From assembly GCF_018448935.1 (NCBI RefSeq), contig NZ_RCWC01000031.1, forward strand, positions 1-64,000: a DNA stretch of 64,000 nt, read 5' to 3'. The notes beneath the pieces were generated by a model, which was given only the letters and a program-made list of their open reading frames with translations, was not told the origin of the DNA and did not search any database. A program made the position numbers and the translations under genes. Shown piece after piece: positions 646 through 19,700 of the stretch (positions are counted from its first letter, which is position 1; the number at the start of each line of letters is the position of its first letter). Origin of the DNA: Photorhabdus noenieputensis. Lineage in GTDB: Bacteria; Pseudomonadota; Gammaproteobacteria; Enterobacterales; Enterobacteriaceae.

Positions 646-1608
646 ATGGCTGATATACTTAAATATGGCGATACAGTAAGAATATTAAATGGTTACAATA
701 ACTGGCAAGGAGGATATCTCAGTACATATGGAGGAAATGACATACCAGGAGCAAAACATAGCGTATTAACTGTAGCTCCTTCTTTTTCTGATCTAGGAGG
801 AATATGGCGGATAAAATCAGGAACGGGAAAAGCCATCGGCAGTGAAATAATTAATGATGATATTATTTTACTTCATAATCTGTCTTTTTGCGATGGTGGT
901 TACTTGGGATATTATGATGGTCCTAACCAACCAGTACCAAGTGGAGAAATACACCCGGTAATCACATCAGATATAAATACTTATTCGCCAAAAACATTAG
1001 AATGGATTGTTTATTGCGAGACACCTTATTCCATAAACGGAAATATCATAGAAGGAGCAATTATCACCTTACATAATCGATGGGGGAATAAAGGTTTCCT
1101 TAATAGTTATGGTAATGCCAACAAACCAAACACGTTATATGGTGTATCTCTTTCTGGTAATAGCACTCGTAAAACAATTAAGGTAGAGCAGTGGAAAATG
1201 GAAAAGATTAATGATCCTTGTCCGCCTACCACTCCCTCAAATTGCGGTGGAGAATGCGGTACCAATGACACCGGTAAACACTGTTTCCAATTACCTAAAA
1301 ATATTCAATTTGGTCTGACAGCTTACAATAATACGAACATTCAGCAAACGGTAAAAGTGTATATTGACGATCTTCTGGTAGACACATTAACCGGCAAAGT
1401 AACAAATAATTTAATGGCGACCAAAACCTACACATCAGGTACAGGAAACGTTTGCATTGAAATTGAAGGAAATGGTAAACCTAGCAAACTGCGTTATTTC
1501 GATAACACTCTTGATGGAAAACCGGGAACGGCAATTATAGGAGCTGAAAATGATGCCAATAATAATTACAATGATTGCGTAGTAATATTAAATTGGTCGT
1601 TGGTGTGA
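646..1608 (+). CDS. Beta-trefoil-like / LecB-type two-domain lectin
   Basis: The 320-residue protein has no signal peptide and two domains. Residues about 5-190 hold three similar units of about 60 residues, each opening with a GDTVRILN-, NDDIILLHN- or GAIITLHN-type strand, a GGYL/KGFL turn with a nearby YG, and closing on a Trp. That three-fold pattern suggests a beta-trefoil. After a Pro-rich linker (CPPTTPS) comes a Cys-rich entry (NCGGECG, KHCFQLP) and a LecB/PA-IIL-like domain of about 115 residues with FGLTAYNN and NNNYND ending in LNWSLV. Relative to PA-IIL the calcium ligands N21, E95, N103 and D104 are kept and D99 and D101 are Asn. It is thus the best-preserved LecB domain in the window. 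AAGGA at 635-639 supports the ATG. Sugar binding (fucose or mannose) is inferred from the fold. A role in insect or nematode host contact is a guess from context. Confidence 0.8.
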   Translation: MADILKYGDTVRILNGYNNWQGGYLSTYGGNDIPGAKHSVLTVAPSFSDLGGIWRIKSGTGKAIGSEIINDDIILLHNLSFCDGGYLGYYDGPNQPVPSGEIHPVITSDINTYSPKTLEWIVYCETPYSINGNIIEGAIITLHNRWGNKGFLNSYGNANKPNTLYGVSLSGNSTRKTIKVEQWKMEKINDPCPPTTPSNCGGECGTNDTGKHCFQLPKNIQFGLTAYNNTNIQQTVKVYIDDLLVDTLTGKVTNNLMATKTYTSGTGNVCIEIEGNGKPSKLRYFDNTLDGKPGTAIIGAENDANNNYNDCVVILNWSLV

Positions 1609-1783: not shown

Positions 1784-2794
1784 ATGAATACAAATACCTA
1801 TTTATTTCTTAACTCAGAAAATATTAAATATCATGATGATCCACAAATCAACAAAGGAGATACTCCCCGGCTTATCAGTAGAGATTGGCCTAGCCTTCCT
1901 GTCGAATTTCAACGACATATTGACGATGTGATTAATTTAAACGGCTATTTATATTTTTTTAAAGGCTCACAATATCTTAAATTCGATATCGAGAAAGCTC
2001 AGGTAAGTGAGGGACCAAAACACATTATAGAAGGATGGCCTGGATTGAGAGGCACCGAATTTGAAAATGGGATAGATGCAGCTACCGAGTTTGTCGATAC
2101 AAAACGAGATGTTGTCTGTTTCTTCAAAGGGCGAGACTGTATTGATTATACCGTCAGTTCACACACGATTAGTAAGAAAACTATTTCAGAGAGATGGGAA
2201 ACTATCGAAAAATACGCAGGATTCAATGCAAATCTGGATACCGTTGTTTTATGGAAAAGCATTGCAGGTTCTCTTATTTACTTCTTCAAAGACAACAATT
2301 ATGTCCGATACAATACAAAATCAAATACTATTGATATCGGACCTACATCCATCCAAACTTATTGGCATGGCGTCGCTTTTAATAGAGTTCAAGCTATGGT
2401 ATCGGTTGACGCAGATTTATTGGGTAGTCAAAACTGTGGCGGAAAATGTGGTACCAGTGACACCGGTAAATATTGTTTCCAATTACCTCAGAGTACCAAA
2501 TTTAGGCTGACAGCCTACACGAATACTGATGTTCATCAACAAACAGTAAAAGTCTATATTGACGATCTTCTGGTAGATACATTAACCGGCAAGGGGATAG
2601 ATAACCTGATAGCGACTAAAACCCATGCATCCGGTACAGGTAAAGTCTGTATTGAGATTACAGGCAATGACAAACCCTGCAAACTCCGTTATTTCGATAA
2701 TACTCTTGAGGGAAAACCCGGAACCGTCATTATTGGGGCTGAAAATGGTGCCGCTAATAAGTACAAGGATAGTGTCATCATTCTGAACTGGTGA
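1784..2794 (+). CDS. Hemopexin-repeat (photopexin-like) / LecB fusion
   Basis: This 336-residue protein starts after an excellent AAGGAG (1770-1775). Residues about 4-205 carry four hemopexin-type blades, recognisable as YLFLNSENIKY, LYFFKGSQYLKFD, VVCFFKGRDCIDY and IYFFKDNNYVRYN. They make one four-blade propeller, the repeat described for Photorhabdus photopexins. A Cys-rich hinge (NCGGKCG, YCFQLP) leads into a LecB-like domain. The calcium site is badly damaged: aligned to PA-IIL, D99 is Ala, D101 and N103 are Lys, and the protein stops at the LNW position, so the last three residues, including the ligand Gly114, are absent. N21, E95 and D104 remain. Ordinary calcium-dependent sugar binding is therefore doubtful, while the propeller may still bind its partner (haem-like ligand or glycan, unproven). 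No signal peptide is visible. A strong terminator follows at 2834. Confidence 0.8.
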   Translation: MNTNTYLFLNSENIKYHDDPQINKGDTPRLISRDWPSLPVEFQRHIDDVINLNGYLYFFKGSQYLKFDIEKAQVSEGPKHIIEGWPGLRGTEFENGIDAATEFVDTKRDVVCFFKGRDCIDYTVSSHTISKKTISERWETIEKYAGFNANLDTVVLWKSIAGSLIYFFKDNNYVRYNTKSNTIDIGPTSIQTYWHGVAFNRVQAMVSVDADLLGSQNCGGKCGTSDTGKYCFQLPQSTKFRLTAYTNTDVHQQTVKVYIDDLLVDTLTGKGIDNLIATKTHASGTGKVCIEITGNDKPCKLRYFDNTLEGKPGTVIIGAENGAANKYKDSVIILNW

Positions 2795-3257
2795 GTTAAA
2801 GATTTTCATTAGTGATAAACTCTGTCAATAATTAAAGCGGTATTATGCCGCTTTTTTACGCCACATTTATCAACACCAATAAAATTATCACCAAAATTAC
2901 TTTCGATATTACAACAATTATGGGGCCAAGAAGAAAGCCTCTCTCAGCACTGATACCTCCGCAATGAACTACACCAGATATAAAAACAAGAGAAATGATT
3001 AATTTTTTGTATCTCAATTATCTGATAGTTAAATATTAACATTGAGTTAAAATCAGCGACAAATAATATGAATTATCTATCTATTAGTTGAGCCATGAAC
3101 TTTATTTATAAAAAACAATGATGTTTGTTTAATTTTAAAAAAAGTAAATAATAGAGTCTTATGATAAGGTGATTTGTATAAGTTAAAAGTTAGGATAAGT
3201 ATTTTAGAGGGAACTAAATAAGAAAAAACGAAAATAACCAACCTAGGAGTATTAATC
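2795..3257. other. Intergenic region with a terminator and an AT-rich leader
   Basis: It contains the hairpin at 2834-2857, then about 400 bases of AT-rich DNA without a credible gene. An AGGAG site at 3243-3247 serves the next gene. A minus-strand frame at 3077-3295 has no ribosome site and low-complexity composition, so I do not call it. Confidence 0.5.
2834..2857 (+). terminator. Rho-independent terminator
   Basis: AAAGCGG, a 7-base loop and CCGCTTT form a perfect 7-bp stem followed by a T run. It lies 40 bases after the hemopexin-LecB stop. The same hairpin, with the same flanking letters, recurs at 6653-6676 behind the third hemopexin-LecB gene. Confidence 0.85.
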
Positions 3258-3677
3258 ATGTCAATTGTTTTTGCATCAATAGATCCACGTAGCAATCCCC
3301 TACAAACATCAAGTCAAAATTATGTTGATATACCCGGTTTGAAACTTGATGTTTCAAAGTATTCGAACTCACCATGCTTAACAGCATTAATCACGTTAAA
3401 TATACCAACTCCCTATGCTTCAGGTAACAATTTTCCTGGAGGGAACTTTATTATTGTAACTGATCAAGGCGAACAATTGGCTTTCGGTGGATTTACCTAC
3501 AGCAATAAGAGTCCAGAATCCTATGGACGTATGCCATTCACGCTGGTTGCCCATTGTTCCCTTGCGTCTAATGTTTCTACTATAAAAGCTCAATGGAGTA
3601 ATGTACGTGGTAGCACGGTACATATCGATACATATGCATCTATCTCTGCGGTTATTCAGTACAATCAGTTAGTTTAG
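3258..3677 (+). CDS. TNF-like fucose-binding lectin (BC2L-C N-terminal domain homologue)
   Basis: This is a complete 139-residue protein behind AGGAG. Nearly its whole length matches my memory of the N-terminal TNF-like domain of Burkholderia cenocepacia lectin BC2L-C: YVDIPGL.LDV, NIPTPYASGNNFPG, FTYSNKSPESYGRMPFTLVA and the closing VRGSTVHIDTYAS. In BC2L-C this domain forms a trimer with TNF-like jelly-roll fold and binds fucosylated glycans at the subunit interfaces; the PES.GRMPF segment lies in the binding region. BC2L-C carries a LecB domain at its C-terminus. Here the TNF-like half stands alone, surrounded by genes with LecB domains. There is no signal peptide and no extra domain. Binding to fucosyl glycans and trimer formation are inferred from homology. 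A partnership with the neighbouring LecB proteins is speculation. Confidence 0.82.
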   Translation: MSIVFASIDPRSNPLQTSSQNYVDIPGLKLDVSKYSNSPCLTALITLNIPTPYASGNNFPGGNFIIVTDQGEQLAFGGFTYSNKSPESYGRMPFTLVAHCSLASNVSTIKAQWSNVRGSTVHIDTYASISAVIQYNQLV

Positions 3678-4142
3678 TTTCAATGATTAGGTACTGCGTC
3701 ATACACAGTGTATAGAATTAATTTGGAGTTAAGCCGCTACCGACATTTTCTATTCATAAATGAAAAAATTAGTGGTGGCTTAGCCTCAGAAAGATAATTT
3801 CTATCAATTCATAAAACAACGATCAATTTTATTTTATACGATCGCCTTTCAAGGTGATATATATTTAAATGTGTCAACACATAATATAAATCTATATTAA
3901 AAACGACTATTTTTCCAGTAAGCCATTAATTATTCATATACTGATTATTTAAATTTTTCAAAACAATAGATAACGCTGGGGAACTCAGTCCAATTTTTTC
4001 GTTCTGTTTAATTGCAAAAAAACCAAACTTTTATCATTAAAACCAATACATTTTGAAAGATAACGGGTATATGGGGCTAATAAGAAAGCCCCTTTGCATA
4101 TATCATACAAAATAGTTAAATAACCAGATTCAATATTCCATA
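3678..4142. other. Intergenic region between convergent genes
   Basis: This AT-rich stretch of about 465 bases separates the TNF-like lectin from the convergent minus-strand gene. The only structure I see is the short hairpin at 4073-4095. No open frame with a ribosome site is present. Confidence 0.45.
4073..4095 (+). terminator. Possible terminator hairpin between convergent genes
   Basis: GGGGCT (4073-4078) pairs with AGCCCC (4087-4092) and is followed by TTT. It sits 50 bases beyond the stop of the minus-strand gene ending at 4143 and well after the TNF-like lectin. The T run is short, so termination is only possible. Confidence 0.4.
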
Positions 4143-4817
4143 TTAAAAATCTTGGAAAAATATCGCTCGATCAAACGGTGTCCGGTAAAGAGAATTTTGT
4201 TGATCTATTGTGGTAGCCTGAGAAGACATACCAAGAATAATCCCTATCTGACCAGACGCAAGATTTCCCGTCATCAGCGTGTTCATATTATATTGGCAAA
4301 GCTCCACCTTCCATTTATCTAGCACAGCATTATACCACTCAATGATTAATGTTCCGTTATTTGCCGCAAGCAAGCCAATACGCCAACGTGACCAAGAATT
4401 TTTTGGCCATTCATAACTCAGTGCAACACCATGAGCACTACCTAGCGTCGGTTGCCCTTTATAAATACCATCCGTTTGTTTGCCAACAAAGTTTACTGCT
4501 TGGATCAAATTAGCCGCCTGAAGATTCCAAACCATGACATAAGGCGTCGCAGTGTCAATCGAAGTACCTAACGAAATATTTGATGGCATCCATTGAGGCT
4601 TACCTTTATATCCCCCAGTCAAATGAATCGCCATATAGCCGTAACCAATATTTTGATATGTACCGCTTGCACTCGTTTTCCTGGATAGTACACTCACTGA
4701 AATGCCAGGATATGGATTACAAAACAGGTCAAGTTCACAATAACAATGTCTGGCATCAACCGGTGTATCTGTTGCAATCCCGAGACAGTGACTACCAATA
4801 TTGCCAAATTTAGACAA
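4143..4817 (-). CDS. Unrecognised protein, TTG start, inside the lectin island
   Basis: I do not recognise this 224-residue protein. It is rich in Gly, Ser, Asn, Trp and aromatic residues with alternating strands (GYGYMAIHLTGG, WSRWRIGLLAANNGTLIIEW). This suggests an all-beta fold, perhaps lectin-like given the neighbours. It has no signal peptide and no obvious catalytic motif. The frame opens after a TAG only 30 bases upstream; the first usable codon is a TTG with AAGG in front. The DNA just behind its start (from about 4841) reads as the interior of a hemopexin-LecB gene on the opposite strand. This gene has therefore been placed against a broken gene, and its original promoter, or even its true N-terminus, may be lost. 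It could be cargo of a small insertion or a deletion survivor. Confidence 0.55.
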   Translation of the reverse strand: MSKFGNIGSHCLGIATDTPVDARHCYCELDLFCNPYPGISVSVLSRKTSASGTYQNIGYGYMAIHLTGGYKGKPQWMPSNISLGTSIDTATPYVMVWNLQAANLIQAVNFVGKQTDGIYKGQPTLGSAHGVALSYEWPKNSWSRWRIGLLAANNGTLIIEWYNAVLDKWKVELCQYNMNTLMTGNLASGQIGIILGMSSQATTIDQQNSLYRTPFDRAIFFQDF

Positions 4818-4840
4818 AGTTTGTGCCTTGAAAGCTTTAA

Positions 4841-5473
4841 AAGACTATCGCAGATAGATGGGGGATAACAGAACAATACTCAGAATTTAGTGAAAATCTG
4901 GATGCGGCTATTTTATGGCGAAACTCCGGTTATTTTTTTTATCTTTTCAAAGGCAATGAATATCTCCGTTTACATCTAATGTTGAATAATATGTATAGTG
5001 AACCCGAGCTTATTCAAACTAAATGGAAAGGCGTCACTTTTAATAAAATCCAAGCGGCAGTGTCAGTCGATCCCAATATATTAGGCAGTGATATCAATGT
5101 AAACTGCGGCGGAACATGTGGGATGAATAACACCAGTAAACATTGCTTTCAATTACCTCAAAGTATTCGATTTGGCCTGACTGCCTACGTAAATAGTGAT
5201 GCTCATCAACAATCAATCAATGTCTATATCGACGACCGATTGGTCGATACCTTAACCGGTAAGGGGATAAGTCACATAACAGACGTTAGGACCTACACAT
5301 CAGGCACGGGCAAAGTCTGCATCGAGATTATCGGAGATGGTAAACCCTGCACACTTCGTTATGCCTATAACACTCTAGAAGCAAAACCCGGAACAGCCAT
5401 TATCGGCGCTAACAATGGTTCCAATGACAATTATGATGATAGTGTGGTAGTGTTGAATTGGCCATTATCATGA
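4841..5473 (+). pseudogene. 5'-truncated hemopexin-LecB gene
   Basis: From 4841 an uninterrupted frame reads KTIADRW, then ENLDAAILWRN, YLFKGNEYLR and WKGVTFNKIQAAVSVD. These match the third-fourth hemopexin blades of the copies at 1784 and 5567. The frame is cut by a TAA at 4838, exactly where homology ends. The first in-frame ATG is 4979 and lacks a ribosome site. The LecB domain is complete (NCGGTCG, KHCFQLP, FGLTAYVNSD, NDNYDDSVVVLNWPLS). Relative to PA-IIL, N21, D101-to-N, N103-to-D, D104 and a normal-length C-terminus are seen, while E95 is Asn and D99 Asn. The first two blades, the start codon and the promoter are gone, so expression is doubtful. If translation did begin at 4979 it would make a 164-residue, nearly pure LecB lectin. 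Confidence 0.78.
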
Positions 5474-5566: not shown

Positions 5567-6589
5567 ATGAATTCAAACACCTATTTATTTCTTAACTCAG
5601 AAAACATTAGATATAACGACTCAGAAGATAAAGCAGACACGGGTTATCCCCAAACTATCAGCAATGATTGGCCTAGTCTCCCCATCGAGTTTCAAAAAAA
5701 TATTGACGATGTGATTAATTTAAACGGCTCATTATATTTTTTTAAAGGCTCTCAATACCTTAAATTCGATATAGCCAAAGCTCTGGTGATTGATGGGCCA
5801 AAACCCATTATTGAGGGATGGCCGGGGTTGAAAGGTACTGGACTGGAAAATGGTATCGACGCCGCCACAGAATGGGTGGATACAAAACAAGATGTTGTCT
5901 GTTTCTTTAAAGGCAGAGATTGCATCGATTACACCGTCAGTTCACACACGATTAATAAGAAAACCATTTCAGACCGATGGGGCACTACCGGAAAATATGC
6001 AGGATTTAGCGAAGACCTCGATGCTGTTATTTTATGGAAGAATACCGCCGGCTCTACCATTTACTTTTTCAAAGATAGTTATTACATCCAATACAATACA
6101 AAATCTCATGTTATCGATGGTGAACCCTCCTTTATTCCAACTTACTGGAAAGGAGTCACCTTCAAAAAAATTCAAGCCGCCGTATCGGTTGATATCGATT
6201 CGTTAGGTAGTGAGTATAGAAACTGTGGTGGAATCTGTGGCAGCACGAACACCGGTAAACACTGTTTCCAGTTACCTGACAATATAAAGCTTAGCCTATC
6301 AGCCTACGGTAACACTGCTCATCAGCAAACGATAAAAGTGTATATTGACGATCAGTTAGTCGATACATTAATCAGCCAAGGTGCCAATAGTGTGTTGGGC
6401 TTTAAAAATTACTCATCAAGCACCGGCAAAGTCTGCATTGAAATTATAGGCGACGGCAAGCCCTGCAAACTCCGTTACGCCTATAACACCCTTGACGAAA
6501 AACCGGGAACAGCCATTATCGGTGCCAGCAATGGGGGCAATAATAATTACGATGACAGCATAGTCGTGTTAATTTGGTCACAGGCTTGA
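5567..6589 (+). CDS. Hemopexin-repeat (photopexin-like) / LecB fusion, second full copy
   Basis: The 340-residue product is a close paralogue of the protein from 1784: same opening MNSNTYLFLNSENI, the same four blades (YLFLNSENIRY, LYFFKGSQYLKFD, VVCFFKGRDCIDY, IYFFKDSYYIQYN) and the same hinge (NCGGICG, HCFQLP). AAGGA at 5554-5558 supports the start. The LecB domain keeps N21 and D104. N103 is Asp, E95 is Ser, D99 and D101 are Asn, and the tail ends WSQA rather than WPLG. The specificity loop (GNTAHQQ) differs from PA-IIL. Sugar or calcium affinity is therefore uncertain. It is probably a tandem-duplication product, since the terminator behind it is identical to that behind the first copy. 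No export signal is seen. The blades are separated by TISDRW and PKPIIEGWPGLKG-type linkers, as in the sister copy. Confidence 0.8.
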   Translation: MNSNTYLFLNSENIRYNDSEDKADTGYPQTISNDWPSLPIEFQKNIDDVINLNGSLYFFKGSQYLKFDIAKALVIDGPKPIIEGWPGLKGTGLENGIDAATEWVDTKQDVVCFFKGRDCIDYTVSSHTINKKTISDRWGTTGKYAGFSEDLDAVILWKNTAGSTIYFFKDSYYIQYNTKSHVIDGEPSFIPTYWKGVTFKKIQAAVSVDIDSLGSEYRNCGGICGSTNTGKHCFQLPDNIKLSLSAYGNTAHQQTIKVYIDDQLVDTLISQGANSVLGFKNYSSSTGKVCIEIIGDGKPCKLRYAYNTLDEKPGTAIIGASNGGNNNYDDSIVVLIWSQA

Positions 6590-7073
6590 ATCAAAAAGCC
6601 ACAAATACACTACTCTGGCAACATCAGTCGAGATGACATTTATCAATAAATTAAAGCGGTATTATGCCGCTTTTTTCTGTCTACCACGCAGATATATCTG
6701 CAAAATGATACCGTTTTTGCTGATATGAACACGGTCATAAACAGAAAAAACATGACTTACCCTTTCAAGTAACATGATATAGTCGAAACTCGGTTATCCG
6801 CCAAATAGCCTCCTATCCGATAAAAATTAACTTTTTGATCTTTTCTTTTCCTATCTCCCGTTGCTATGAATATTCAACAATGCAGGAATTCAACCCTATT
6901 TTAGGCCCACAAGGGATTAGATAAAAGGCGAGACAACCTGTTCGTGGCAATAACCGAATCCTGAAATGACACCAGAAGTTATGCACTAATAACATAGTCG
7001 GAGGGAAAATCATTTCAGGGTAAGTATCAGTTGTTTGAAGAGCGATAGCATATTTTCCGAGGAAATGATGGAT
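6590..7073. other. Intergenic region ahead of the trefoil remnant
   Basis: It holds the terminator at 6653-6676, then about 390 bases with no credible frame. GAGGA at 7059-7063 is the ribosome site for the following gene. No other structure is apparent to me. Confidence 0.45.
6653..6676 (+). terminator. Rho-independent terminator, duplicate of the 2834 hairpin
   Basis: AAAGCGG, a 7-base loop and CCGCTTT plus a T run are identical letter for letter to the terminator at 2834-2857. This supports duplication of a gene-plus-terminator unit. Confidence 0.85.
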
Positions 7074-7691
7074 ATGGATAATGTACTTAAATATGGCGAT
7101 ACCGTGACAATATTAAACAGCTACAAGAACTGGAGCGGTGGGTATCTCAGTGTATTTGGCAACGGTAATAAACCTGGAACAAAATATGGCGTGGTAACTG
7201 TAGATGCTTCTTTAGCTATTTATGGCGGTGCCTGGAGAATTGAGTCAGCAACGGGAAAACCTGTCGGCAGTGAAATAATCAATAATGATATTATTTTACT
7301 TCACAACCTATATTACTGTGATGGCGGTTATTTACGATATTATGATGTAGTGGATCAAAATGAACAATTGACCGAAATACATCAAGTCTACACCACAGAT
7401 ATCCGCAAAAGAGCAACATTAGAGTGGGTTATTTATTGTGAAACCACACCACCAAATGAAAATATCAGAGAAGGCGATAGTATCTCTCTCTATAATCGAT
7501 GGGGAAATAAAGGTTTTCTTGATACCCATAATCATGCCGGCGATACAGGCTCGTTATATCAAGTCTTCATGTCCAATAATGCTGCCCGTAAAAGCCAGAC
7601 CGGTTTATGGAAAATGGCAAAGGTGAATGATCCTTGCCCTCCCCCTGATGTGTTGACCAATATCATGCCGTTGTGGCGTAAGATGCGGTAA
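7074..7691 (+). pseudogene. Trefoil-LecB gene broken at the domain junction
   Basis: The product matches the trefoil half of the protein from 646: NVLKYGDTVTILN, GGYLSVFG, NDIILLHN, GGYLRYYD, LEWVIYCET, NRWGNKGFLDT and the linker VNDPCPPP. I place the start at ATG 7074 because it aligns with the first copy; ATGs at 7065 and 7068 with GAGGA at 7059 are alternatives. At the CGG.CG hinge the frame shifts. The other frame from 7666 reads CRCGVRCGNNN, the remnant of NCGGECGTND, then degenerates and stops near 7767. The LecB domain is lost. The remaining 205 residues might still fold as a free trefoil, so this may be a decayed gene or a shortened functional lectin. Confidence 0.7.
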
Positions 7692-8423: not shown

Positions 8424-10496
8424 ATGTTGAAACATAGCGTAACCACTATTGCTGTGTTATCTGTTTTTTATTCCCATCAGAGTTTGGCAAATAAAAATAG
8501 CAAAACAGATTCGTTGGACACTATTGTTGTGACTGCGGAGAAAGTTTCTGCGGATCAGCAAAAAACAGCAGTAGGTATGACAGTATTATCTGATTTTGAC
8601 ATTGAACGGAAAGGGGTTGAAAATTTTTATGAGGCCGTTTCAGGGATTCCCAATTTATATATGATAAAAGCAGGTAATCCATCTGATGCCGGGTTTATTT
8701 CATTACGCGGCGTCACGCCTGGTATGGAAGGGGAACAGGCGGTGGGTTTCTTTACTGACGGTGTATATAGTCATTCATTTGACACCGAATTGCTGGATAT
8801 TGAACGCATCGAAGTATTACGTGGCCCACAGGCAACATTATATGGCCGCAATACTGAGGCCGGAGTCATTAATATCATTACCAAAGATCCCGATCCTGTA
8901 ACAGACCGGAAATTGGGCTTTTCATATGGTAGTTATAATCGTTTTCAAACTACTGCTATTTTAGGTGGTGGCATTGATGAATATGGCGATTGGTCTTACC
9001 GTACAGCATTACGTTATCTGAATAGCGATGGTTACTTTAAACGGGATTATGATAATAAAAAGAATATAAATGGTATTAATGATTTTAACGGGAGGTTTAA
9101 GCTTCGCTGGCAGCCATCAGACGGGCCGTGGGATATTATTACGACATTCGATGTACAAAACCGCAGAAATGGTAACGCCTCATTCGCACCTCTTGATAAA
9201 ATAAAGAAAGGGACGAAATCTGTAGACTCTGATTATGCAGGTAAGTCAGACGCTAATATTTATAAAGGGTCTCTTAAAGCGGTGTATCAATGGGATAGTA
9301 TGGATCTAACTTCAATTAGTTCATATACTTCGGAAGATAAAAAAGATTATCAGGATCTTGATTTTACCCGTAACCCATTTTCAGAATTGCGAATGGACCG
9401 TAAACAAAATTACCTCTCTCAGGAATTGCGTCTTAACTCTAAAAATACCGGGCCATTTAACTGGTTGATTGGTATGTATTACTTCAATCAGGATGATAAA
9501 TTAGATATTGATTACAGGATGTTGTCGGTCGGATATCAGATTAAAAATACCAACGTTAGAACCAATAATTATGCTCTGTTTGGTAATACCAGTTATTATC
9601 TCATGGATAATGTAGAGCTGGTTACGGGGCTGCGTTATGATTATGAGAAAAAGAATCTGAAATTCAGTAAGACAGAAAATTTCTCGGGAATGACAAGAGA
9701 AAACCTGACTGATGAACTCTCTTTTGATGCTTGGTTGCCAAAAGCCGGGGTCAATTATTATGCTACGGATAACGCTATGTTATATGCCAGTATTGCCCGT
9801 GGTTATAAAAGTGGAGGATTTAACAGTTTAGCACCGAAGGATCAGCGCCGTTTTGATGCTGAATACACCACCAACTATGAAATTGGTCTGAAATCGGAAT
9901 GGTTGGATAAGACTGTACGCTGGAATACCTCATTATTTTGGATTGACTTTACCGATCAGCAGGTTGAAAAGCAATTTTATCCAGAGTCCGTTACCCAGAA
10001 TGCAGGAAAATCAATCAGTAGAGGGCTAGAATCGGAAATTTCCTGGCGGGTGATTAAAGGGCTAACATTATCTGCTAATGCTGGTTTCAATGATGCTCAT
10101 TTTACTGAGTTTAAAGATAATGTTTATGACAAGAAGAGTGGAAAAATTGTGGGCGTTACTGATTATAAAGATAAACGTCCGGCAAATACGCCAAATTATA
10201 CCTATGGGGTTGGTGTAGATTACAATTTCCTCGACGGATATTTTATTCGTGCTGATTATAATGTTGCCGGTAAAGTTTATTTCGATAATGCTAATACTGA
10301 GAAGCAGTCTAATTACGGCTTGTTGAATCTTAGAGCTGGATATGAGACGTCAGCTTACGATATTACATTATGGGCGAAGAATCTGTTAAATAAGACCTAT
10401 GTTACTCGTGCATTCCCAATGTCTGGAGATAACAATTGGTATGGTCGTGCAGGAGAGCCTCTGACTTTTGGTGCGACAGTCAATGTTAAGTTCTGA
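8424..10496 (+). CDS. TonB-dependent siderophore receptor (FyuA-like)
   Basis: This 690-residue outer-membrane receptor would import the iron complex made by the downstream assembly line, using TonB energy. Residues 1-22 form a signal peptide ending near SLA. The TonB box is DTIVVTAEK (about residues 32-40). The plug domain follows, with ISLRGVTPG and the typical VLRGPQATLYGRNTEAGVINI segment. A 22-strand barrel is expected, ending in aromatic F (NVKF). Length and motifs agree with the yersiniabactin/pesticin receptor FyuA (about 673 residues). It is separated from the NRPS operon by 299 bases containing an ERIC repeat and carries its own Fur-like site, so it is probably a separate iron-regulated unit. 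The ligand is inferred from position. Confidence 0.88.
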   Translation: MLKHSVTTIAVLSVFYSHQSLANKNSKTDSLDTIVVTAEKVSADQQKTAVGMTVLSDFDIERKGVENFYEAVSGIPNLYMIKAGNPSDAGFISLRGVTPGMEGEQAVGFFTDGVYSHSFDTELLDIERIEVLRGPQATLYGRNTEAGVINIITKDPDPVTDRKLGFSYGSYNRFQTTAILGGGIDEYGDWSYRTALRYLNSDGYFKRDYDNKKNINGINDFNGRFKLRWQPSDGPWDIITTFDVQNRRNGNASFAPLDKIKKGTKSVDSDYAGKSDANIYKGSLKAVYQWDSMDLTSISSYTSEDKKDYQDLDFTRNPFSELRMDRKQNYLSQELRLNSKNTGPFNWLIGMYYFNQDDKLDIDYRMLSVGYQIKNTNVRTNNYALFGNTSYYLMDNVELVTGLRYDYEKKNLKFSKTENFSGMTRENLTDELSFDAWLPKAGVNYYATDNAMLYASIARGYKSGGFNSLAPKDQRRFDAEYTTNYEIGLKSEWLDKTVRWNTSLFWIDFTDQQVEKQFYPESVTQNAGKSISRGLESEISWRVIKGLTLSANAGFNDAHFTEFKDNVYDKKSGKIVGVTDYKDKRPANTPNYTYGVGVDYNFLDGYFIRADYNVAGKVYFDNANTEKQSNYGLLNLRAGYETSAYDITLWAKNLLNKTYVTRAFPMSGDNNWYGRAGEPLTFGATVNVKF

Positions 10497-10795: not shown

Positions 10796-13700
10796 ATGGA
10801 CGATAAAAATAACTCATCAGGATGGGTAAGAGATACTCTTTATTCATATGCAAATAGACAACCTGACGAAACAGTTTTAAGATATTGCCTTAAGAATAAT
10901 ACTCAAGAATTTAATTATAGAGATGTTATCTGTCTCAGTAGTTATATTGCCCGCCATATAAATTACCGCGAAAATGCTAAAGCGATTATTCTGATACCGG
11001 GTAATGCTCAATTTATTTTGGGATTCATAGCTTGTATTATCCGTGGCATCACGGCTGTCCCTGTTAACTTACCTGCCAGTCATCGTCTTGGACGAGTCGC
11101 GGATACAATTGATCATATTTTTGAAGATTGTCAGCCAGAATATATTATTACTTTAAAAAGCTCCGTTGATGAAATTGAAAAGCGACAATGGCATATAGGT
11201 CGTCAGGTTATTGTGCTAGATGATATTCTTACGGAGAATGATATATCAGAAATACCATCAGCTAATGAATATAAGGAGTTAATGTGTCCGAATGATGGTC
11301 CGGTATTCCTTCAATATTCTTCTGGTTCTACCGGTAAGCCGAAAGCGGTCTGCAATTTTGATGCAAATATGCAGGCGCAACATGAGATATTGCTTGAATT
11401 ACATCGCGATTGCCAGCCACGAATTATTACAGCCAATTGGATACCGTTTTATCATGATATGGGCATATTTTGTGGGTTATTAACGCCACTATTATCTGGC
11501 GGTTGTTGCAACTTCATTTTGCCTAGCCATTTTGCTGCTGATCCTGCCCGTTGGTTAAAGCTGATTACTGATTATTCTGCAAATTCTACAGCCGCACCAG
11601 ATTTCGCCTGGCAAATGTGCGTTGATAGTATCACTCAAAAACAAGCGGCAGAATTCGATCTCTCTTCGCTGAAAATGGTATTGAATGCCGCAGAACCTAT
11701 ACGGGCTGAAACTATGCCGCGGTTTGCCCGCCATTTTTCTGTATCAGGTTTTAATCCTTTAAGCTTTGTGCCCGCCTATGGTATGGCGGAAGCAACTCTC
11801 GTCATCAGCCGAAAACCCGCCGGGATGCCATTCATTAGCCAGCGTTTTGATGCAGATAGGCTTGTTGCTGGTTACGCTGTTCCTGATGAAAATGGTCGTG
11901 AGTTGGTAAGTTCAGGGCAGGTTGTCAGTGGGTGGAAACTACGGATTGTTGATCCCGAAACCGGTGAAATATTACCAGAAGGGCGAGTTGGTGAAATTTG
12001 GGTTGATGGTGATTCCAAGGCGCTTGGTTATTGGCAGAAACCCGAACTTAGCCGAAAGACTTTTATGGCTTGCCTTAATCAGTCTATAGATAAAAGCCAT
12101 TACCTGCGAACCGGGGATTTAGCCTTTATCTGGCAGGGAGAACTTTATATCTGTGGTCGGCATAAAGATCTTATTATTATCGCTGGCGAAAATTACATGC
12201 CAAATGATATTGAAGCTAATATTGAGACGGGATGTGAAGAAGTAAAAATCGGTGGAGTTTGTGCTTGCCAGCGGGTAGAAAGCGGAGAATTATTCGTTTT
12301 TGCTGAAGTTTATCGCCATCTTGAAACGACTGAATTACAGGCTATTGCCCGACAGATTGCTGCCAGAGTCGCATCGGAGTTTCAGCTTTCACTAGAGAAT
12401 GTTGTGTTATTGCCTCATGGAGAGTTGAAAAAAACGTCCAGTGGAAAAATCCGACGCAAACAAATGTTGGCTGATTTTGATAACAACCAGCTAAAAGTAC
12501 TTTTTATCTTGCCGTGTGATACGGATAAAAAAATATCGCCTTCCCTGTCCAGTTGGCTTTATCAGCTTCTTTGTAGTTTGTTGCACTTAGATAACCCAGA
12601 TCCTGCCTGTGGCTTTGCTGAATTGGGGTTAACCAGCCTATTAGCAGTCCGCTATTGCCAGCAAATAAACAAAACTTGGCATTGTAATCTAACCCCTGCG
12701 GATTTATTTGCTTATCCAAATATTACTCAATTGGCTAAATATATTGATAAATTATCAGGTGAAAAAATCACGGAGTCTGTCAGGAAATCTGAATCAGCCA
12801 GAAATAAACAAATTGCAATTATTGCGATAAGCTGTCGCCTGCCGGGGCAGACAAGCAACAGATGGCAGCAATACGGGCAATGGTTGGCAAAAGGAGAGTT
12901 AGCCGTCAGAGACAACAATTCAGAACTTCGCCAATTTACGCTGCCTATTGGCGCTCTGGAAGATATTGATCAATTTGACGCCCGTTTCTTCAACATTTCA
13001 GCCCGGGAAGCCGTATTACTTGATCCTCAGCAGAGGTTATTGCTTGAATTAAGCTGGCATTTATTCGAACAAGCCGGATGGTTGCCGGAGCAATTGAAAC
13101 AATCGGATATTGGTTTCTTTATCGGTCAGAGCGGCAGTGAATTCGGTCAGCAACTACTAAAACTGAATAATCCTGAATATGCCAAAAGTTATTTAGCTAC
13201 TGGGATTAATACGAGTGCAAGTTCTGGCAGATTAGCAAAGTTCTATGGAACAACAGGTCCGGCACTCACTATTGATACAGCCTGCTCTTCTTCTTTGGTG
13301 GCATTAGATACTGCGATACGTAGCTTACAACAAGGGCAATGCCACGCTGCTGTCGCTGGTGGCGTTAACATTTTACTGTCACCACAGATTGAACAAACAT
13401 TGATAAACGCGGGTATGTTATCACCTGAGGGGCGATGCGCTACGCTGAGTGAAGACGCGGATGGCTATGTCAGAGGAGAAGGTGCGGCATTACTATTGCT
13501 AAAACCTTATCAACAAGCTTTGGATGACGGTGATCCGGTACTGGCAGTGATTGAATCCAGTTGTGTCGCTCAGGATGGTGAAAGCAGCAGTTTGACTGCT
13601 CCGAATCCGCAAGCTCAGTCAGCAATGCTGATGCGATTATTGGAACAGGCTGATATTGCTCCTGATGATATTGATTTGCTGGAGATGCATGGCACGGGTA

Positions 13701-16700
13701 CAGCTTTAGGCGATCCAATTGAGTTACAAGCTATCGATAGTGTTTATGGTAAACGACGCCAACCATTGCCGTTGGCCGCTTGTAAAGCACAAATTGGTCA
13801 TCTGGAAGCTGCCGCAGGTGTGGCCTCCGTGGTTCGCGCCGTGGCACAGATACAGCAACAACAACGGTTTGGTCATCCAACTCTGGCTTCGTTCAGCACT
13901 AAATTGTCAGCGTTAATGCCACGTTATCGTTACAGTAAACAGACTGAATCTCATCGAATAGAATACGTTGCGGTTAGTTCATTCAGTTTTACCGGCACAA
14001 TGGCAGGCTTAGTGCTGAGTAAAGCAAACTTATCTGATCATCCGGTTCCTGCGCCATGTGTTGAAAATGGTTTATTACCGCTTTCAGCCTGTAGTGCATC
14101 CGCATTGCAACAGATGGCAAATCAACTAGCAGATTTGCTGGAAAATCACCAAGAGCAAGCCGGAGAATTACTCAACGGTTGGTTGAAGAAACGCCATCAT
14201 CATTTTGGTTGGCGGGTGTTAATTCCCTATCAGAATTTATCAGCTCTGATTGCGCATTTGCGCCATGTTGAACCGATTCAAATTGATCGCGTAAGAATGT
14301 TAGACAAGAGCGATGATCCTTACGATTGGTTACAAGGGCAATCCTATAACTGGGTTAAATATGCAGGGAGCATGCCTGTTAGCCGATTTGTACTAACCAA
14401 ACTGCCTCTTTATCCATTCAATCGCGCGAGTTACTGGCCAGAAGAACTTCGTTTAACTGAACAGGGGACCCAAGATCGATCCGAATCTTGCTCAAGTCAT
14501 ACCAGCTTTGATTTCGTTATCAATTGGGTAGCGGACATATTGGGAACTGAGCCTAATTTATTAGCAATGGATGATAATTTGCTCAATTTGGGCATTGATT
14601 CATTACAGATGTTGGATTTGGTGGATGAGTGTAAAAAACAGAATGTCATTCTGTCATTAGCTTCCTTATTCCAACAGCCAACGTTAGCCGCATGGCAACA
14701 GTGTTGGTTTTCTGCCGTTCAATCTAAAGATGTCTCAACAGAATCAGAGCAGCCGGTTATAAAATGGAATGGCGAGCCTTTCGAACTCACTTCGGTTCAG
14801 CAAGCCTACTGGACGGGGCGCCAAAAAGATCAGATTCTGGGGGGAATCGCTTGTCAGGTCTATCTGGAATTGGATTGCCCGCCACTGAAAGACAGTGATA
14901 TTGAATGGGCAGTTAATCAATTACATCAGCGCCATGATATGTTGCGGATGCGTATTATCCGTGATGGTAAAGGGGAAATTACGACTTACCAGCCGGTATC
15001 CATTGAATCTTATGGCTGGCAGCAACTTTCACTGAATTTATTGGAAGAGGAGAGATTCGCTCTCAGGCAACGTCTGGAAACCAAAGTTGCAGATCTGACA
15101 ATTGAAAGCGGATTTGGCGTAGTGGTAAGCCATACCGTGAATAGCAGTCGCTTACATATTAATATCGATATGGTGATGGCTGATGCTATGAGCCTTCAGA
15201 TTTTGTTGAAAGAACTCAGCCAGTTTATTTTGACGCCGGGTGTACTTCTTCCTCAATTAAATTACAGCTTCCCACAATATCTGTGTGAGCAAGCCGTTGA
15301 TAATCAGTTAATCGACAGTCGTCAATACTGGCAAAAAAGATTGGCTGAGCAATTCCCTTTCGCACCTCAGTTACCTCTGGCAGTGAAACCAGAACATATT
15401 GATAAACCTGATTTCTATCATCGCCAGTGGAGTCTGGAACAACCTCGTTGGCTATCATTGAAGGAAACCGCCCGCAGCAACGGTATAACCCCATCAATGT
15501 TGCTGGCGAATTGCTTTGCCGAAACATTACGTGGCTGGGCTGAATCACCGAATTTCACTCTGAATCTGACGATTTTCAACCGCCGTGGAAAACATCCTCA
15601 ACTACCTGATTTAGTTGCTGATTTTACAACATTACTGTTACTGGCTTGCCATACGCAGGCGGGGAACAGCATTTTAGAAAACTGCCGGGTTCTCAATCGC
15701 CAGTTTATGTCAGATCTGGATCATGTGGATTACAGCGCAATTCAGGTTATGCGGGACTGGTCGCAGATATGCGGGCATCAGGTTCTCATGCCGGTGGTAT
15801 TCACCAGCAATCTTGGCCGTGATCTGCTTAGCGGTAATGAACTGGGCGATCTGAATTATTTGGTATCCCAGACGCCACAAGTCTGGATTGACTGCCAGGT
15901 GATGGAGCATCAAGGGGAATTATTAGTCAGTTGGGATTGTGTGGATGGATTATTTCCTCAAGGGATGATTGATCAAATGTTCAGCTTTATGACTCAACTG
16001 ATCAGCGCGATTACCGACAATCCTCAACTGCTCTTAAAACCGGTTTCGCGTTATGTCACGCCAGAAATTATTGAACAGCGTACAGAGCCTAAAGATCGTG
16101 ATGGCATGCTTTTTACGCCTCGTTTACTACATCGCCGTTTTTATGAGATAGCTGAATTGTGGCGAGATTCACCTGCGGTTATCACGCCTCATCAACGATT
16201 AAGTTACGACGAACTTAAGCAGGATGTACTGGAACTGGCTTACAGACTGAAAGGAAAAAAAGTAAAGGCCGGAGATAATCTGGCATTACTGTTGCCAAAA
16301 GGTACAGAACAAGTTGTGGCGGTTTTGGCTTGCTTAAGTGTCGGGGCTGTATATGTTCCGTTGGATGTAGCGCAGCAAACAGCCCGTTTACAGACCATTA
16401 TCAGTCAGGCGGATATTTCGTTGATTATTACAAACAGTGAATATCAGGGGCTTGTTAGTCGCTGGTTTGATTCTGTTTTAGATATTCATCAGACAGGTCA
16501 TTCGCAACTGCCGTTATCACAGGTGGTTTATGGGGAACCGGGACTTTCTGCTTATATCATTTTTACATCCGGCTCTACCGGCACGCCTAAAGGTGTTGTG
16601 GTATCTCATCAGGCTGCCGCTAATACGATTGATGATATTAATCGCCGTTATGGTCGATGGGAAAAAACACGAGTATATGCGCTATCAGCACTGAATTTCG

Positions 16701-19700
16701 ATTTGTCGGTGTATGACACCTTTGGCCCTCTTGCGTCAGGGGGTTCCCTGATTATGCCTGGGGTGGGCCATGAGCGAGAAGCAAAACAGTGGTTAGAGCA
16801 GTTGCATAAGGAGCAGATAACCGTCTGGAACAGTGTTCCGGCACTGTTTGATATGTTGCTGGCGGCGGCTGAAAATGATCCTCGCGGTTTGCCTGATTCA
16901 TTGCAACAGATATTGTTATCCGGTGATTGGGTTGGTCTGGATCTGCTACCCCGTTTGCGTAAAGTCGGAAGCCAGGCGCAATTAACGGCAATGGGTGGAG
17001 CAACGGAAGCAGCGATCTGGTCTAACGCGATTGATGTCGATGCTATCCCGTTGGAATGGCATTCAATTCCTTACGGTTATCCGCTCTCTAATCAGCATTA
17101 CAGAGTCATGGATTCACAACAACGGGATTGTCCTGATTGGGTCGCAGGAGAGTTGTGGATCGGTGGAGAAGGCGTCGCACTGGGCTATTACGGCGACCAA
17201 GAAAAAACAGATGCTCAGTTTGTTCTGCATCAGGGACAGCGTTATTACCGGACGGGAGATTATGGCCGCTTTTGGCTAGGAGGATGCCTTGAGTTTCTTG
17301 GCCGCAAAGATAGCCAGATTAAACTGAATGGTTACAGGATTGAACTGGGTGAAATTGAGACTGTGGCTTTACGTCACCCTGCAATCAGTAAAGCCGTTGC
17401 ATTATGTTTATCTGAACCACAGAAACACCTGAGATTATTCGTTGAAGGTCAAGTTATCGCGGGTGATTCTTCAACATTAGCTGAGGATGTATTGCCTGAG
17501 ATGCCAACATTGGTTCAGGTAGAAAGCAGTCAGTATGATGAACAGCATATTGCTTTATCACTGTTGCAAAAGATATTGATTGATTCTTTGCAACTGACGC
17601 TAACTCAGCCACAGAGTGCAGAAATACTTTATCAACAAGCCGGGATAATACCCCGTTATCAGCCACTATTTATTCAGTGGTTGGAATGGCTGGTTCATCA
17701 GGGATGGTTATCTGAAAGTGAAAAAGGTTGGCAATTGAATCAAGATTGGCAATCAGATAACAAGCCGGTGCTGGTATCTCGAATGGATGAGATTTATCAA
17801 ACGCTTAATAGGTGTTGTGACTGGGTTGCGCAGGTTATCCAAGGGAAACAGAATCCACTGGTGCTGATTGATGATCCTGTATTATCACCGGAAGTTTTGG
17901 TTGCTGGTTCACCGGAAACTGGAGCGGCAATTACCCTTATCGCGGATCAAATCCATCAGTTATCCACGATATTGCAGCGACCTGTCAGAGTAGCAGAGCT
18001 GAATGGCCGCAGTGGTCTGTTTGCAGTCAAGTTACTCGATCTATTGTCGGATTTGGATATTGAATACTGCTTAGTTGAACAGGCTGGTTCACTGCGTGAA
18101 TTGGCGAAATATCGTCTGTCGGGTTATCCGCATCAGAGCCAGGTTTGTACGGTGCAAGAAGCGGCGCATTATCGTGCTGATCTGGTTATCAGTAATAATG
18201 CACTGCATCGCTATGCTGATATCCGTCAAGGAATCTCCGATCTGCAAGTCTTGGTGTCTTCTGGCAGTAAAGCATTGGTGTTTGAAAGTCAATATCTCAG
18301 CCCGCTGGCACAATTAACGGTATTACTGTTGCAGGATGAAAATGGTTTTACTGATCTGAGACAAGGGCAGCGAGATCCACTATTGGATAAGAAACGTTGG
18401 CAACAGCAGTTGTTGCAAGGTGATTTACCTGTGCAGTCTGTCACGGTAATTGGTGAGAACTCCATACTGTTGATGTGCAAAAACTGTAGTGGCAACGTTA
18501 TGGTTAATCGCCATGAACTGACGCAGCATCTGACAAATTATCTTCCAGCTTATATGTTGCCGCAGTATTTACATGTTTTAGATAAACTGCCATTGAATGC
18601 TAATGGAAAAATAGATCGCAAAGCACTTGAGCAATTAACGGTAGACGAGGCAGAACAGAAAATTCTGCAATCTGTACAGGGAGCCGAATTGTCGGGAAAA
18701 GCCGAATATCTGGTCGCTAAAATCTGGCAACAGGTATTGGGAACAGAACCAATGGCTGACAGCAATTTCTTCCTGCTCGGTGGTGATAGTTTACATGCGA
18801 CTCGGATTGTTGTGGCGCTGGAATCAGAAGGAGCTGTGGATGTCTCACTGGCTCAAGTGTTTTCCTCCCCGGTATTGCGTGATTTTGCGCGATTGATGAC
18901 TTTTGCTGAACGGCCAAAAACCGAAATGATGCAACTGCAACATCAGGAAAGTGAGCGTTATCATCCATTCCCCCCTACAGATGTACAACGAGCCTATCTG
19001 ATGGGACGTCAGGTCGGTTTCCGTCTCGGTGGTGTTGCAACTCATTATTATAATGAATATGAAGGTCAGCCTTTTGATGCAATACGGTTGGAACAAGCTT
19101 TATCCGTTTTGATTGCCCGTCATGATGCATTGAGAATTGTCTTTGATGAGCAAGGAATGCAACGAGTGCTGCCACAGCAGCCAAAACCTGCGCTGGAAGT
19201 GATCCACTGTTCTGAACAACAGTGGTCAGAAGAAACGAGTAAACTGCGAGAAATTTTATCTCATCGGGTACTTGATCCGACACAGTGGCCATTGTTCCAT
19301 GTGACGCTGATTCAATCAGATAATGGGCGTAATCGCCTGTATATCGGGTTGGATAATCTGATCTTAGATGGCTTGAGTATGCGTATTTTCTTCGCTGAAC
19401 TTGAGCAGCTTTATCAGCAACCGGAAGCGGTATTGCCGTCAGTCGGGATTGGTTTCCGTGATTATCTCACCACAGTGGTTTCTGATGAGGAAAAGAGCAG
19501 CAAATCAGCAAATTACTGGCGGCAGCGGCTGGCAGAATTACCTGAAGCGCCAAAACTGCCGCTGATTTGTGATCCACAGTCATTGGGGACTCCACGGTTT
19601 AAACGTTGGCAATCTGTTTTGCCTCAGCAACAGTGGCAAACTCTGACAGAAAAAGCACGGCATTATCAAGTGACGCCTTCTTGTTTATTGCTGACTTGTT

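What the first reader, a model, noticed from the sequence alone, without database searches (positions are those of the whole stretch)
3258..3677. Free-standing TNF-like lectin next to LecB proteins: BC2L-C split into parts
The small protein matches the N-terminal domain of Burkholderia BC2L-C, whose other half is a LecB domain. Here the TNF-like half is a separate gene among genes with LecB halves fused to hemopexin or trefoil domains. This suggests a modular lectin system where the same two fucose-lectin folds are shuffled. It may bind two glycan types on insect or nematode surfaces.
Basis: partly seen in the sequence, partly recalled or inferred. Interest (0 to 1): 0.85.

Follow-up and report, generated by a model that had tools for sequence, protein, structure and literature searches.

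The report
Free-standing TNF-like fucose lectin
The gene encodes a small sugar-binding protein whose close twin from a sister bacterium was crystallised in 2025, so the find is mostly known; new here are a changed residue in its sugar pocket, a history partly separate from its neighbours, and signs that the neighbouring lectin domains have lost their classical sugar site.

Summary
In detail: window 3258-3677 encodes a 139-aa free-standing TNF-like lectin (Pfam Bc2l-C_N, E 1.3e-77) beside genes with LecB-type (PA-IIL) domains. It is not new: it is 128/139 identical to PLTL of Photorhabdus laumondii (PDB 9IB6-9IB9, FEBS J 2025).
'BC2L-C split into a shuffled fucose-lectin system' is only partly supported. 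(1) Stand-alone proteins occur in several lineages; the TNF-LecB fusion was seen only in Burkholderia, 14 of 14 scanned loci. (2) TNF and LecB genes are not inherited as a unit: TNF in 4 of 12 Photorhabdus, LecB in 12 of 12; no LecB near it in 3 Xenorhabdus; synonymous divergences disagree in most pairs, not all. (3) Photorhabdus LecB domains lack the two-calcium site: D96, D99, D101 and terminal Gly kept in 0 of 47 scored, against 48 of 48 controls. (4) The window lectin differs from PLTL mainly around its fucose loop: Tyr89, not Ser89, as in 6 of 7 Photorhabdus/Xenorhabdus proteins.
Most likely it is a hexameric lectin for fucosylated nematode glycans.

The parts
3258..3677 (+). Free-standing TNF-like fucose lectin, ortholog of PLTL (139 aa), with Tyr89 and Ser88 in the fucose loop and Cys40 for hexamer formation
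   Evidence: PF21592 E 1.3e-77; 128/139 identical to PDB 9IB6; residue comparison
3245..3249 (+). Likely ribosome-binding site AGGAG
   Evidence: read directly from sequence
646..1608 (+). N-domain (threefold repeat, possibly beta-trefoil) fused to a LecB-like domain without the canonical calcium ligands (E95, N96, N99, N101, N103, D104; C-terminal Val)
1784..2794 (+). Hemopexin repeats + LecB-like domain (photopexin type); calcium motif further degraded and reading frame ends after NW
4143..4817 (-). 5'-truncated member of an unknown ~297-aa Photorhabdus family (called U297 here) that flanks the TNF gene in other genomes
4979..5473 (+). Remnant of a multi-hemopexin + LecB gene (photopexin) that lost its 5' part; junction with U297 near 4840
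   Evidence: tblastn: hemopexin residues 132-215 start at 4841 while the U297 match ends at 4838
5567..6589 (+). Hemopexin repeats + LecB-like domain (photopexin type) with Ser/Asn at three of the calcium-site carboxylate positions
7035..7691 (+). N-domain alone, no LecB part

Best explanation
Window 3258-3677 is the Photorhabdus TNF-like lectin (ortholog of PLTL). Shown by comparison: the same family, the conserved fucose-pocket residues Y53, T80, R91, R117 and D124, the wide-pocket residues N63 and G78, and the hexamer residues C40, Q137, S38, V139. Inferred: three chains form a TNF-like trimer with a fucoside pocket at each chain interface; two trimers join through opposing chain ends and C40-C40 disulfides, giving six pockets on the two ends. 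BC2L-C also displays two TNF trimers but joins them through LecB dimers, so the stand-alone form does not need a LecB partner. The released hexamer most likely cross-links Fuc-alpha1-2-type glycans of the nematode partner. The Tyr89/Ser88 loop, shared with Xenorhabdus and two other Photorhabdus but not with the crystallised PLTL, probably keeps fucose binding (the equivalent contact in BC2L-C is through the main chain) but changes fine specificity at the fucose C6 side. The gene has moved between strains and genera, at least in part independently of its neighbours; the flanking LecB-like domains belong to a photopexin island and probably do not act as two-calcium fucose lectins.
For: Pfam/PDB matches; residue table; ortholog structures, hexamer, specificity, nematode binding (PMC12914763: abstract, sections 6, 9, 10, part 1 of 2 of section 11, and passages); BC2L-C Thr83 main-chain O to fucose O4 and side chain beside C6 (PMC7024360 passages); BC2L-C hexamer of two TNF trimers and three LecB dimers (PMC3164656 passages); Tyr89 in window, P. 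khanii, Photorhabdus sp. CRCIA-P01 and 3 of 3 Xenorhabdus; dS window-P. khanii: TNF 0.149, gyrB 0.605, U297 0.421, N-domain gene 0.630, hemopexin-LecB gene 1.178; window-X. griffiniae: TNF 0.511, gyrB 1.386; patchy presence; LecB calcium ligands lost in 47 of 47 scored domains against the ligand list in PMC8752737 (passages).
Against: No sugar binding was or could be measured here; Tyr89 could instead block the pocket. Native PLTL was found in the cytosol in small amount, so release is assumed. Xenorhabdus proteins have Gly40, so the disulfide hexamer is not general. dS of the TNF gene rests on about 96 synonymous sites and one yardstick gene (gyrB), with one Xenorhabdus genome. Against independent movement: window-CRCIA-P01 dS is as low for the hemopexin-LecB (0.207) and N-domain (0.156) genes as for TNF (0.188), gyrB 0.597, so part of the island moved there too. 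A neighbouring-type photopexin gene, plu1645, is induced by insect homogenate (passages), which would fit an insect role for the island. Functional conclusions are carried over from one ortholog that differs in the binding loop.
Confidence: 0.75

Rival explanations
1. One reading: BC2L-C was split, and the TNF half and the LecB halves act together as a modular two-fold fucose-lectin system.
For: TNF and LecB genes lie side by side in Burkholderia (14 of 14 loci fused, with neighbouring LecB genes) and in 4 of 4 TNF-bearing Photorhabdus islands; window-CRCIA-P01 dS is alike for TNF and two right-hand island genes.
Against: Stand-alone also in Xenorhabdus (no LecB in the fetched flanks of 3 of 3; none in the whole X. 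griffiniae genome) and in two distant genomes; TNF absent from 8 of 12 Photorhabdus that all have LecB; different synonymous divergence in other pairs, for instance P. khanii-CRCIA-P01 TNF 0.054 against hemopexin-LecB 1.302; LecB calcium site lost; not in an operon by layout (463-bp gap upstream, opposite-strand gene downstream).
Confidence: 0.1
2. The Tyr89 form has lost fucose binding and serves another ligand or is decaying.
For: Residue 89 lines the fucose C6 side of the pocket (BC2L-C Thr83); Ser89 is listed as a fucose contact in PLTL.
Against: The open frame is kept in 6 species of two genera with the other pocket residues intact; the corresponding BC2L-C contact is main-chain; window-khanii dN/dS about 0.2.
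Confidence: 0.15
3. The loop difference between PLTL and the window protein reflects recombination with a more BC2L-C-like allele rather than selection on specificity.
For: PLTL shares A65, S83 and a small residue at 89 with Burkholderia; in the tree PLTL sits next to Burkholderia with weak support 87/64; dS window-PLTL is higher in codons 65-100 (0.186) than in 1-64 (0.046) or 101-139 (0.118), on about 24, 45 and 28 sites.
Against: Counted as codons, only 2 of 7 synonymous changes but 8 of 11 replacement changes fall in 65-100; no donor allele was found.
Confidence: 0.3

Closest known systems
PLTL, Photorhabdus laumondii TTO1 TNF-like lectin (PDB 9IB6-9IB9)
   Same: Stand-alone 139-aa protein, 128/139 identical; same island setting in G007, whose lectin has the 9IB6 sequence; same hexamer residues, most pocket residues
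   Different: Window has I65, F76, N83, S85, S88, Y89, H99, C100, V116, T125, Y135; PLTL has A65, Y76, S83, I85, N88, S89, R99, Y100, I116, S125, C135; the left flanking U297 gene is missing in the window
BC2L-C N-terminal domain, Burkholderia cenocepacia (2WQ4, 6TID)
   Same: Same family (about 57% identical), conserved fucose pocket
   Different: Fused to a mannose/heptose-binding LecB domain and set among LecB genes in closely packed frames; shorter loops, no Cys40, narrower pocket
Photopexins PpxA/PpxB (Plu4242, Plu4243) and Plu1645, hemopexin + PA-IIL proteins
   Same: The neighbouring genes are of this type; a photopexin region plu4234-plu4243 is listed as P. luminescens-specific in PMC2717986 (passages)
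   Different: Not related to the TNF lectin; the scored LecB-like domains lack the two-calcium site

Membership tests
TNF-like lectin family Bc2l-C_N (PF21592) | Profile match over the curated cut-off | tested here: met
   258.4 bits, cut-off 27, positions 1-123/123
TNF-like lectin family Bc2l-C_N (PF21592) | Fucose pocket residues (PLTL Y53, T80, R91, R117, D124) | tested here: met
   All five identical
TNF-like lectin family Bc2l-C_N (PF21592) | PLTL loop residues N88/S89 | tested here: not met
   S88/Y89; the family varies here (T or P at 89 in Burkholderia), so this bears on specificity, not membership
TNF-like lectin family Bc2l-C_N (PF21592) | Binding of fucosylated glycans | not testable with these tools
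   Needs purified protein
PLTL-type hexamer | Cys40 and residues S2, Y35, S38, L41, I133, Q137, V139 | tested here: met
   All identical; the hexamer itself was not shown for this protein
BC2L-C superlectin | TNF-like and LecB domains in one chain | tested here: not met
   Stop after 139 aa; no LecB in the frame
BC2L-C superlectin | Closely packed with LecB genes (as in the Burkholderia loci) | tested here: not met
   463-bp gap upstream, opposite-strand gene downstream; Burkholderia frames nearly abut
LecB/PA-IIL two-calcium lectins (the neighbours) | Carboxylates E95, D99, D101, D104 and terminal Gly114, fucose contact D96 | tested here: not met
   D96, D99, D101 and C-terminal Gly in 0 of 47 scored Photorhabdus domains (E95 in 33, D104 in 46); 48 of 48 in controls (ligands)
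Photopexin (hemopexin + PA-IIL) | Hemopexin repeats followed by PA-IIL domain | tested here: met
   1784-2794 and 5567-6589; applies to neighbours only

The most novel reading that the evidence does not exclude
The LecB-fold domains of the Photorhabdus photopexin islands have, across the genus, given up the two-calcium fucose site and been put to another use, leaving the mobile TNF-like lectin as the only canonical fucose binder of the island; its common Tyr89 form in Photorhabdus and Xenorhabdus has a glycan specificity different from the crystallised PLTL, perhaps fitted to each strain's nematode partner.
Probability: 0.35. Interest if true: 0.5.

Novelty: new member of a known kind. Interest (0 to 1): 0.35.

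Why it matters
rBC2LCN is used as a probe for fucosylated stem-cell and cancer glycans (abstract starts), and PLTL is proposed as a tool and as a symbiosis factor. The comparison says that the one characterised Photorhabdus lectin is atypical in its binding loop, that Xenorhabdus has close relatives, and that a 'PA-IIL domain' in photopexins should not be read as fucose binding without a test.

Tried and rejected
Structure prediction of the N-domain (mean pLDDT 32.4) and of the U297 protein (27.2) failed with 3- and 4-row alignments; no fold search was run on them. Searches of the N-domain against PDB, Pfam and PHROGs and of U297 against PDB, Pfam and PHROGs gave nothing significant (best were DUF5669 at E 0.051 in 2 of 13 N-domain members and L,D-transpeptidase at E 0.033 for U297). 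The weak DUF1543 hit of the TNF lectin (E 0.026, below cut-off) and the gastric lipase hit (E 0.082) were rejected as chance. NCBIfam has no model for the lectin. The promoter scan of 2700-4200 found fewer sites than shuffles (2 against 8.8) and is not used; three terminator-like sites against 0.8 expected were not followed. Enterobacter EclA was considered because it also binds fucose; it pairs a LecA domain with a novel fold, and its text has no TNF or BC2L-C (abstract and passages). The idea that the TNF and LecB genes are one co-inherited unit was tested and not borne out overall, with one pair against. The direction of the residue-89 change was left open: Xenorhabdus as outgroup makes PLTL derived, Burkholderia as outgroup makes Tyr89 derived. 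The clustering test (8 of 11 replacements in codons 65-100, binomial p 0.0015) used bins chosen after seeing the data; dN does not exceed dS there (0.130 against 0.186).

In one search the P. khanii gyrB frame was picked wrongly (312 nt); those rows are void and were redone.

Full report
What is there. The reading frame at 3258-3677 (+) is a 139-aa protein with a good ribosome-binding site. It matches the whole Pfam profile PF21592, the BC2L-C N-terminal domain, with E 1.3e-77. In the PDB its closest chain is 9IB6-9IB9, a Photorhabdus laumondii TTO1 protein, identical at 128 of 139 positions; BC2L-C chains follow at E about 1e-36. The window lies in a 5.36-Mb genome (233 contigs) of the same genus as G008 and G002, whose contigs have the lengths of the named P. 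khanii NC19 and Photorhabdus sp. CRCIA-P01 contigs, and as G007, whose lectin has the 9IB6 sequence; its gyrB is 95.4% identical to that of G007. I call it Photorhabdus on that basis.

It is already published in its ortholog. A search for the PDB codes found one paper, PMC12914763 (FEBS J, October 2025). I read its abstract, sections 6, 9 and 10, part 1 of 2 of section 11, and passages. PLTL is a hexamer of two TNF-like trimers held by Cys40-Cys40 bridges, prefers branched Fuc-alpha1-2 glycans, is not toxic to flies, does not bind Galleria haemocytes, and binds tissue of Heterorhabditis (blocked by fucose) and C. elegans. Its main text has no occurrence of hemopexin, PA-IIL, LecB, operon or photopexin, and 'Xenorhabdus' occurs only in its references. 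A search for papers that hold Xenorhabdus, BC2L-C and lectin returned three, all titled on Photorhabdus lectins (of two of them I saw the listing only).

The pocket. Of the 11 differences from PLTL, 8 fall in codons 65-100, the part that holds the fucose loop; of 7 synonymous codon changes 2 fall there. The bins were chosen after looking, so p = 0.0015 is indicative only, and by site counting dS is also highest there (0.186, with dN 0.130), so selection is not shown. Tyr53, Phe59, Asn63, Gly78, Thr80, Tyr81, Arg91, Arg117, Asp124 and Arg11 are kept; Asn88 is Ser and Ser89 is Tyr. In PLTL, Ser89 is listed as a direct hydrogen-bond partner of fucose. In BC2L-C the equivalent Thr83 contacts fucose O4 through its main-chain oxygen, and its side chain lies beside the C6 methyl (PMC7024360 passages). 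So the main contact should survive and the C6 side of the pocket should change; this is inference. Tyr89 occurs in the window, in P. khanii, in Photorhabdus sp. CRCIA-P01 and in the three Xenorhabdus proteins; PLTL alone of the seven has Ser, and the 14 Burkholderia proteins have Thr or Pro. The characterised lectin is thus the exception among the seven. Which state is older is open.

Fusion or split. A scan of the genome collection (84,980 species by its description) with two short motifs, which would miss distant relatives, gave 19 loci: 14 Burkholderia, all 14 with TNF and LecB domains in one frame, 13 of them with a LecB frame on both sides and one (L033) on one side only; 2 Photorhabdus and 3 Xenorhabdus, all stand-alone. 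Family searches found the domain in 5 of 58 relatives (4 of 12 Photorhabdus and X. griffiniae), in 1 of 369 genomes of the class, the window's own, and in 4 of 398 of the phylum, of which two (G729, G518) are new, distant and stand-alone with no LecB in about 5-6 kb on either side. In the tree the fused proteins are one clade (100/100); the two distant rows have very long branches and the root is not fixed. The simplest reading is that stand-alone is older and the Burkholderia fusion derived.

Not one inherited system. LecB domains occur in 12 of 12 Photorhabdus genomes and in 0 of 46 other relatives, including X. griffiniae, which has the TNF lectin. Near the Xenorhabdus genes no LecB was seen in 10 kb on each side (X. 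japonica, X. sp. BG5) or up to the contig ends, 8.1 and 5.6 kb away (X. griffiniae). The TNF gene is in 4 of 12 Photorhabdus, in two gyrB clades that also hold genomes without it (10 of 12 Photorhabdus were in the gyrB tree). Between window and P. khanii dS is 0.149 for the TNF gene, against 0.605 for gyrB, 0.421 for U297, 0.630 for the N-domain gene and 1.178 for the last hemopexin-LecB gene; between P. khanii and CRCIA-P01 it is 0.054 against 0.077 (gyrB) and 1.302 (hemopexin-LecB); between window and X. griffiniae 0.511 against 1.386 for gyrB. Against this, between window and CRCIA-P01 the TNF gene (0.188), the hemopexin-LecB gene (0.207) and the N-domain gene (0.156) are alike and all below gyrB (0.597), and within the closest pair (window, G007) the TNF gene (0.099) is not far from its neighbours (0.144-0.177). 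So parts of the island move too; what the data show is that the TNF gene and the LecB genes do not share one history. DNA similarity to Xenorhabdus includes about 90 bp upstream of the gene, as expected for a gene moving with its promoter. An IS30-like transposase (name recalled) lies beside the X. japonica gene (L026).

The LecB neighbours. In LecB, two calcium ions are held by E95, D99, D101, D104, the terminal Gly114 carboxylate, N103 and the main chain of N21, and fucose is hydrogen-bonded by D96, D99 and Gly114 (PMC8752737 passages). The fetched Photorhabdus regions hold 51 LecB hits (one search lists 73 matches, fragments included, in the 12 genomes); I scored 47, dropping 4 in which gaps covered the site. 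They come from 12 genomes and are 47 distinct sequences. D96, D99 and D101 are kept in 0 of 47, terminal Gly in 0 of 47, E95 in 33, N103 in 32, D104 in 46. The positions E95, D96, D99, D101, N103, D104 and the terminal Gly are kept in 48 of 48 control domains from Burkholderia and G719 (two of the 48 are repeats because L122 and L125 overlap; two very weak LecB matches, L123 and L124, were not used). The Photorhabdus domains are copies within one genus, so the loss may be a single event. They keep the profile match and have extra cysteines. Binding of one calcium, or calcium-free binding, is not excluded. A 2008 paper links the PA-IIL domain of Plu1645 to lectin virulence and the photopexins to iron scavenging, and finds the plu1645 promoter induced 10-fold by insect homogenate (PMC2422844 passages; also PMC2266911 passages). 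Three listings showed me no paper on the sugar site of these domains; two searches were long lists of which only the first 20 and 5 were shown.

The island and the window's version of it. In G007, P. khanii and G002 the order is LecB genes, a U297 gene or a piece of one (minus strand), TNF lectin, a second U297 gene (minus), a gene with two or three hemopexin parts and LecB, hemopexin-LecB, N-domain. The genomes with U297 but no TNF gene (G004, G005, G006, G009) have one U297, so gain or loss through the repeated U297 is plausible; the direction is not settled. In the window the left U297 is gone apart from a short trace of its flank, and a deletion with its edge near 4840 has removed the start of the right U297 and the first part of the large photopexin, leaving 4143-4817 and 4979-5473 as truncated remains.

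How it works. Best reading: a released hexamer with six fucoside pockets on two ends that cross-links glycans of the nematode partner. BC2L-C also presents two TNF trimers, but holds them together with LecB dimers; PLTL does so with Cys40 and the chain ends. This explains why the stand-alone protein needs no LecB half. Xenorhabdus proteins have Gly at 40, so they may be trimers. Family, pocket and hexamer residues are shown by comparison; sugar binding, export and the nematode role of this very protein are inferred from PLTL.

Verdict. The finding is real and correctly identified, but already described in a sister species, and the proposed modular system is not supported as a whole. New here, as far as my searches go, are the Tyr89 group, the Xenorhabdus and distant stand-alone relatives, the partly separate history of the gene, and the loss of the two-calcium site in the neighbouring LecB-like domains.

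Noticed in passing
window 4143-4817 (-); L016:10839-11720 (-); L017:8180-9076 (-): Unknown ~297-aa protein family (U297), found in 8 of 12 Photorhabdus and in none of 26 other relatives searched; no significant Pfam, PDB or PHROGs match; copies or pieces flank the TNF lectin on both sides in three genomes.
   Followed up: partly
window 646-1260 and 7077-7646; L113:351-905: N-domain with a threefold ~60-residue repeat: all three pairs beat 500 shuffles in L113, two of three in the 646 copy and one of three in the 7077 copy. Present in 12 of 12 Photorhabdus, no significant Pfam or PDB match; possibly a beta-trefoil family, also as free ~200-aa proteins.
   Followed up: partly
window about 4840: Deletion edge that truncates two divergent genes at once (U297 and a large photopexin).
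   Followed up: partly
window 1784-2794: Hemopexin-LecB gene whose frame ends after NW, short of the usual C terminus; one search counts a TGA inside a LecB match in two other Photorhabdus genomes as well (position not checked), and one search has three domains ending in NW.
   Followed up: no
L120:5943-6341 (+); L121:6057-6440 (-): Two distant stand-alone TNF-like lectins (G729, G518) with no LecB in about 5-6 kb on either side; not looked up in the literature.
   Followed up: partly
L017 about 10194-10320; many copies in L080, L081, L082: A repeat of about 127 bp scattered through the lectin islands, ERIC-like by length (name recalled).
   Followed up: no
window 8424-10496 and 10796-22084: TonB-receptor-like gene followed by a very large NRPS/PKS-like gene (by motif recall, not searched) directly beside the lectin island; looks like a siderophore cluster.
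   Followed up: no
G000:C49 (L020): Second cluster of hemopexin-LecB and N-domain-LecB genes in the same genome, with a stretch of unknown bases in one of them.
   Followed up: no
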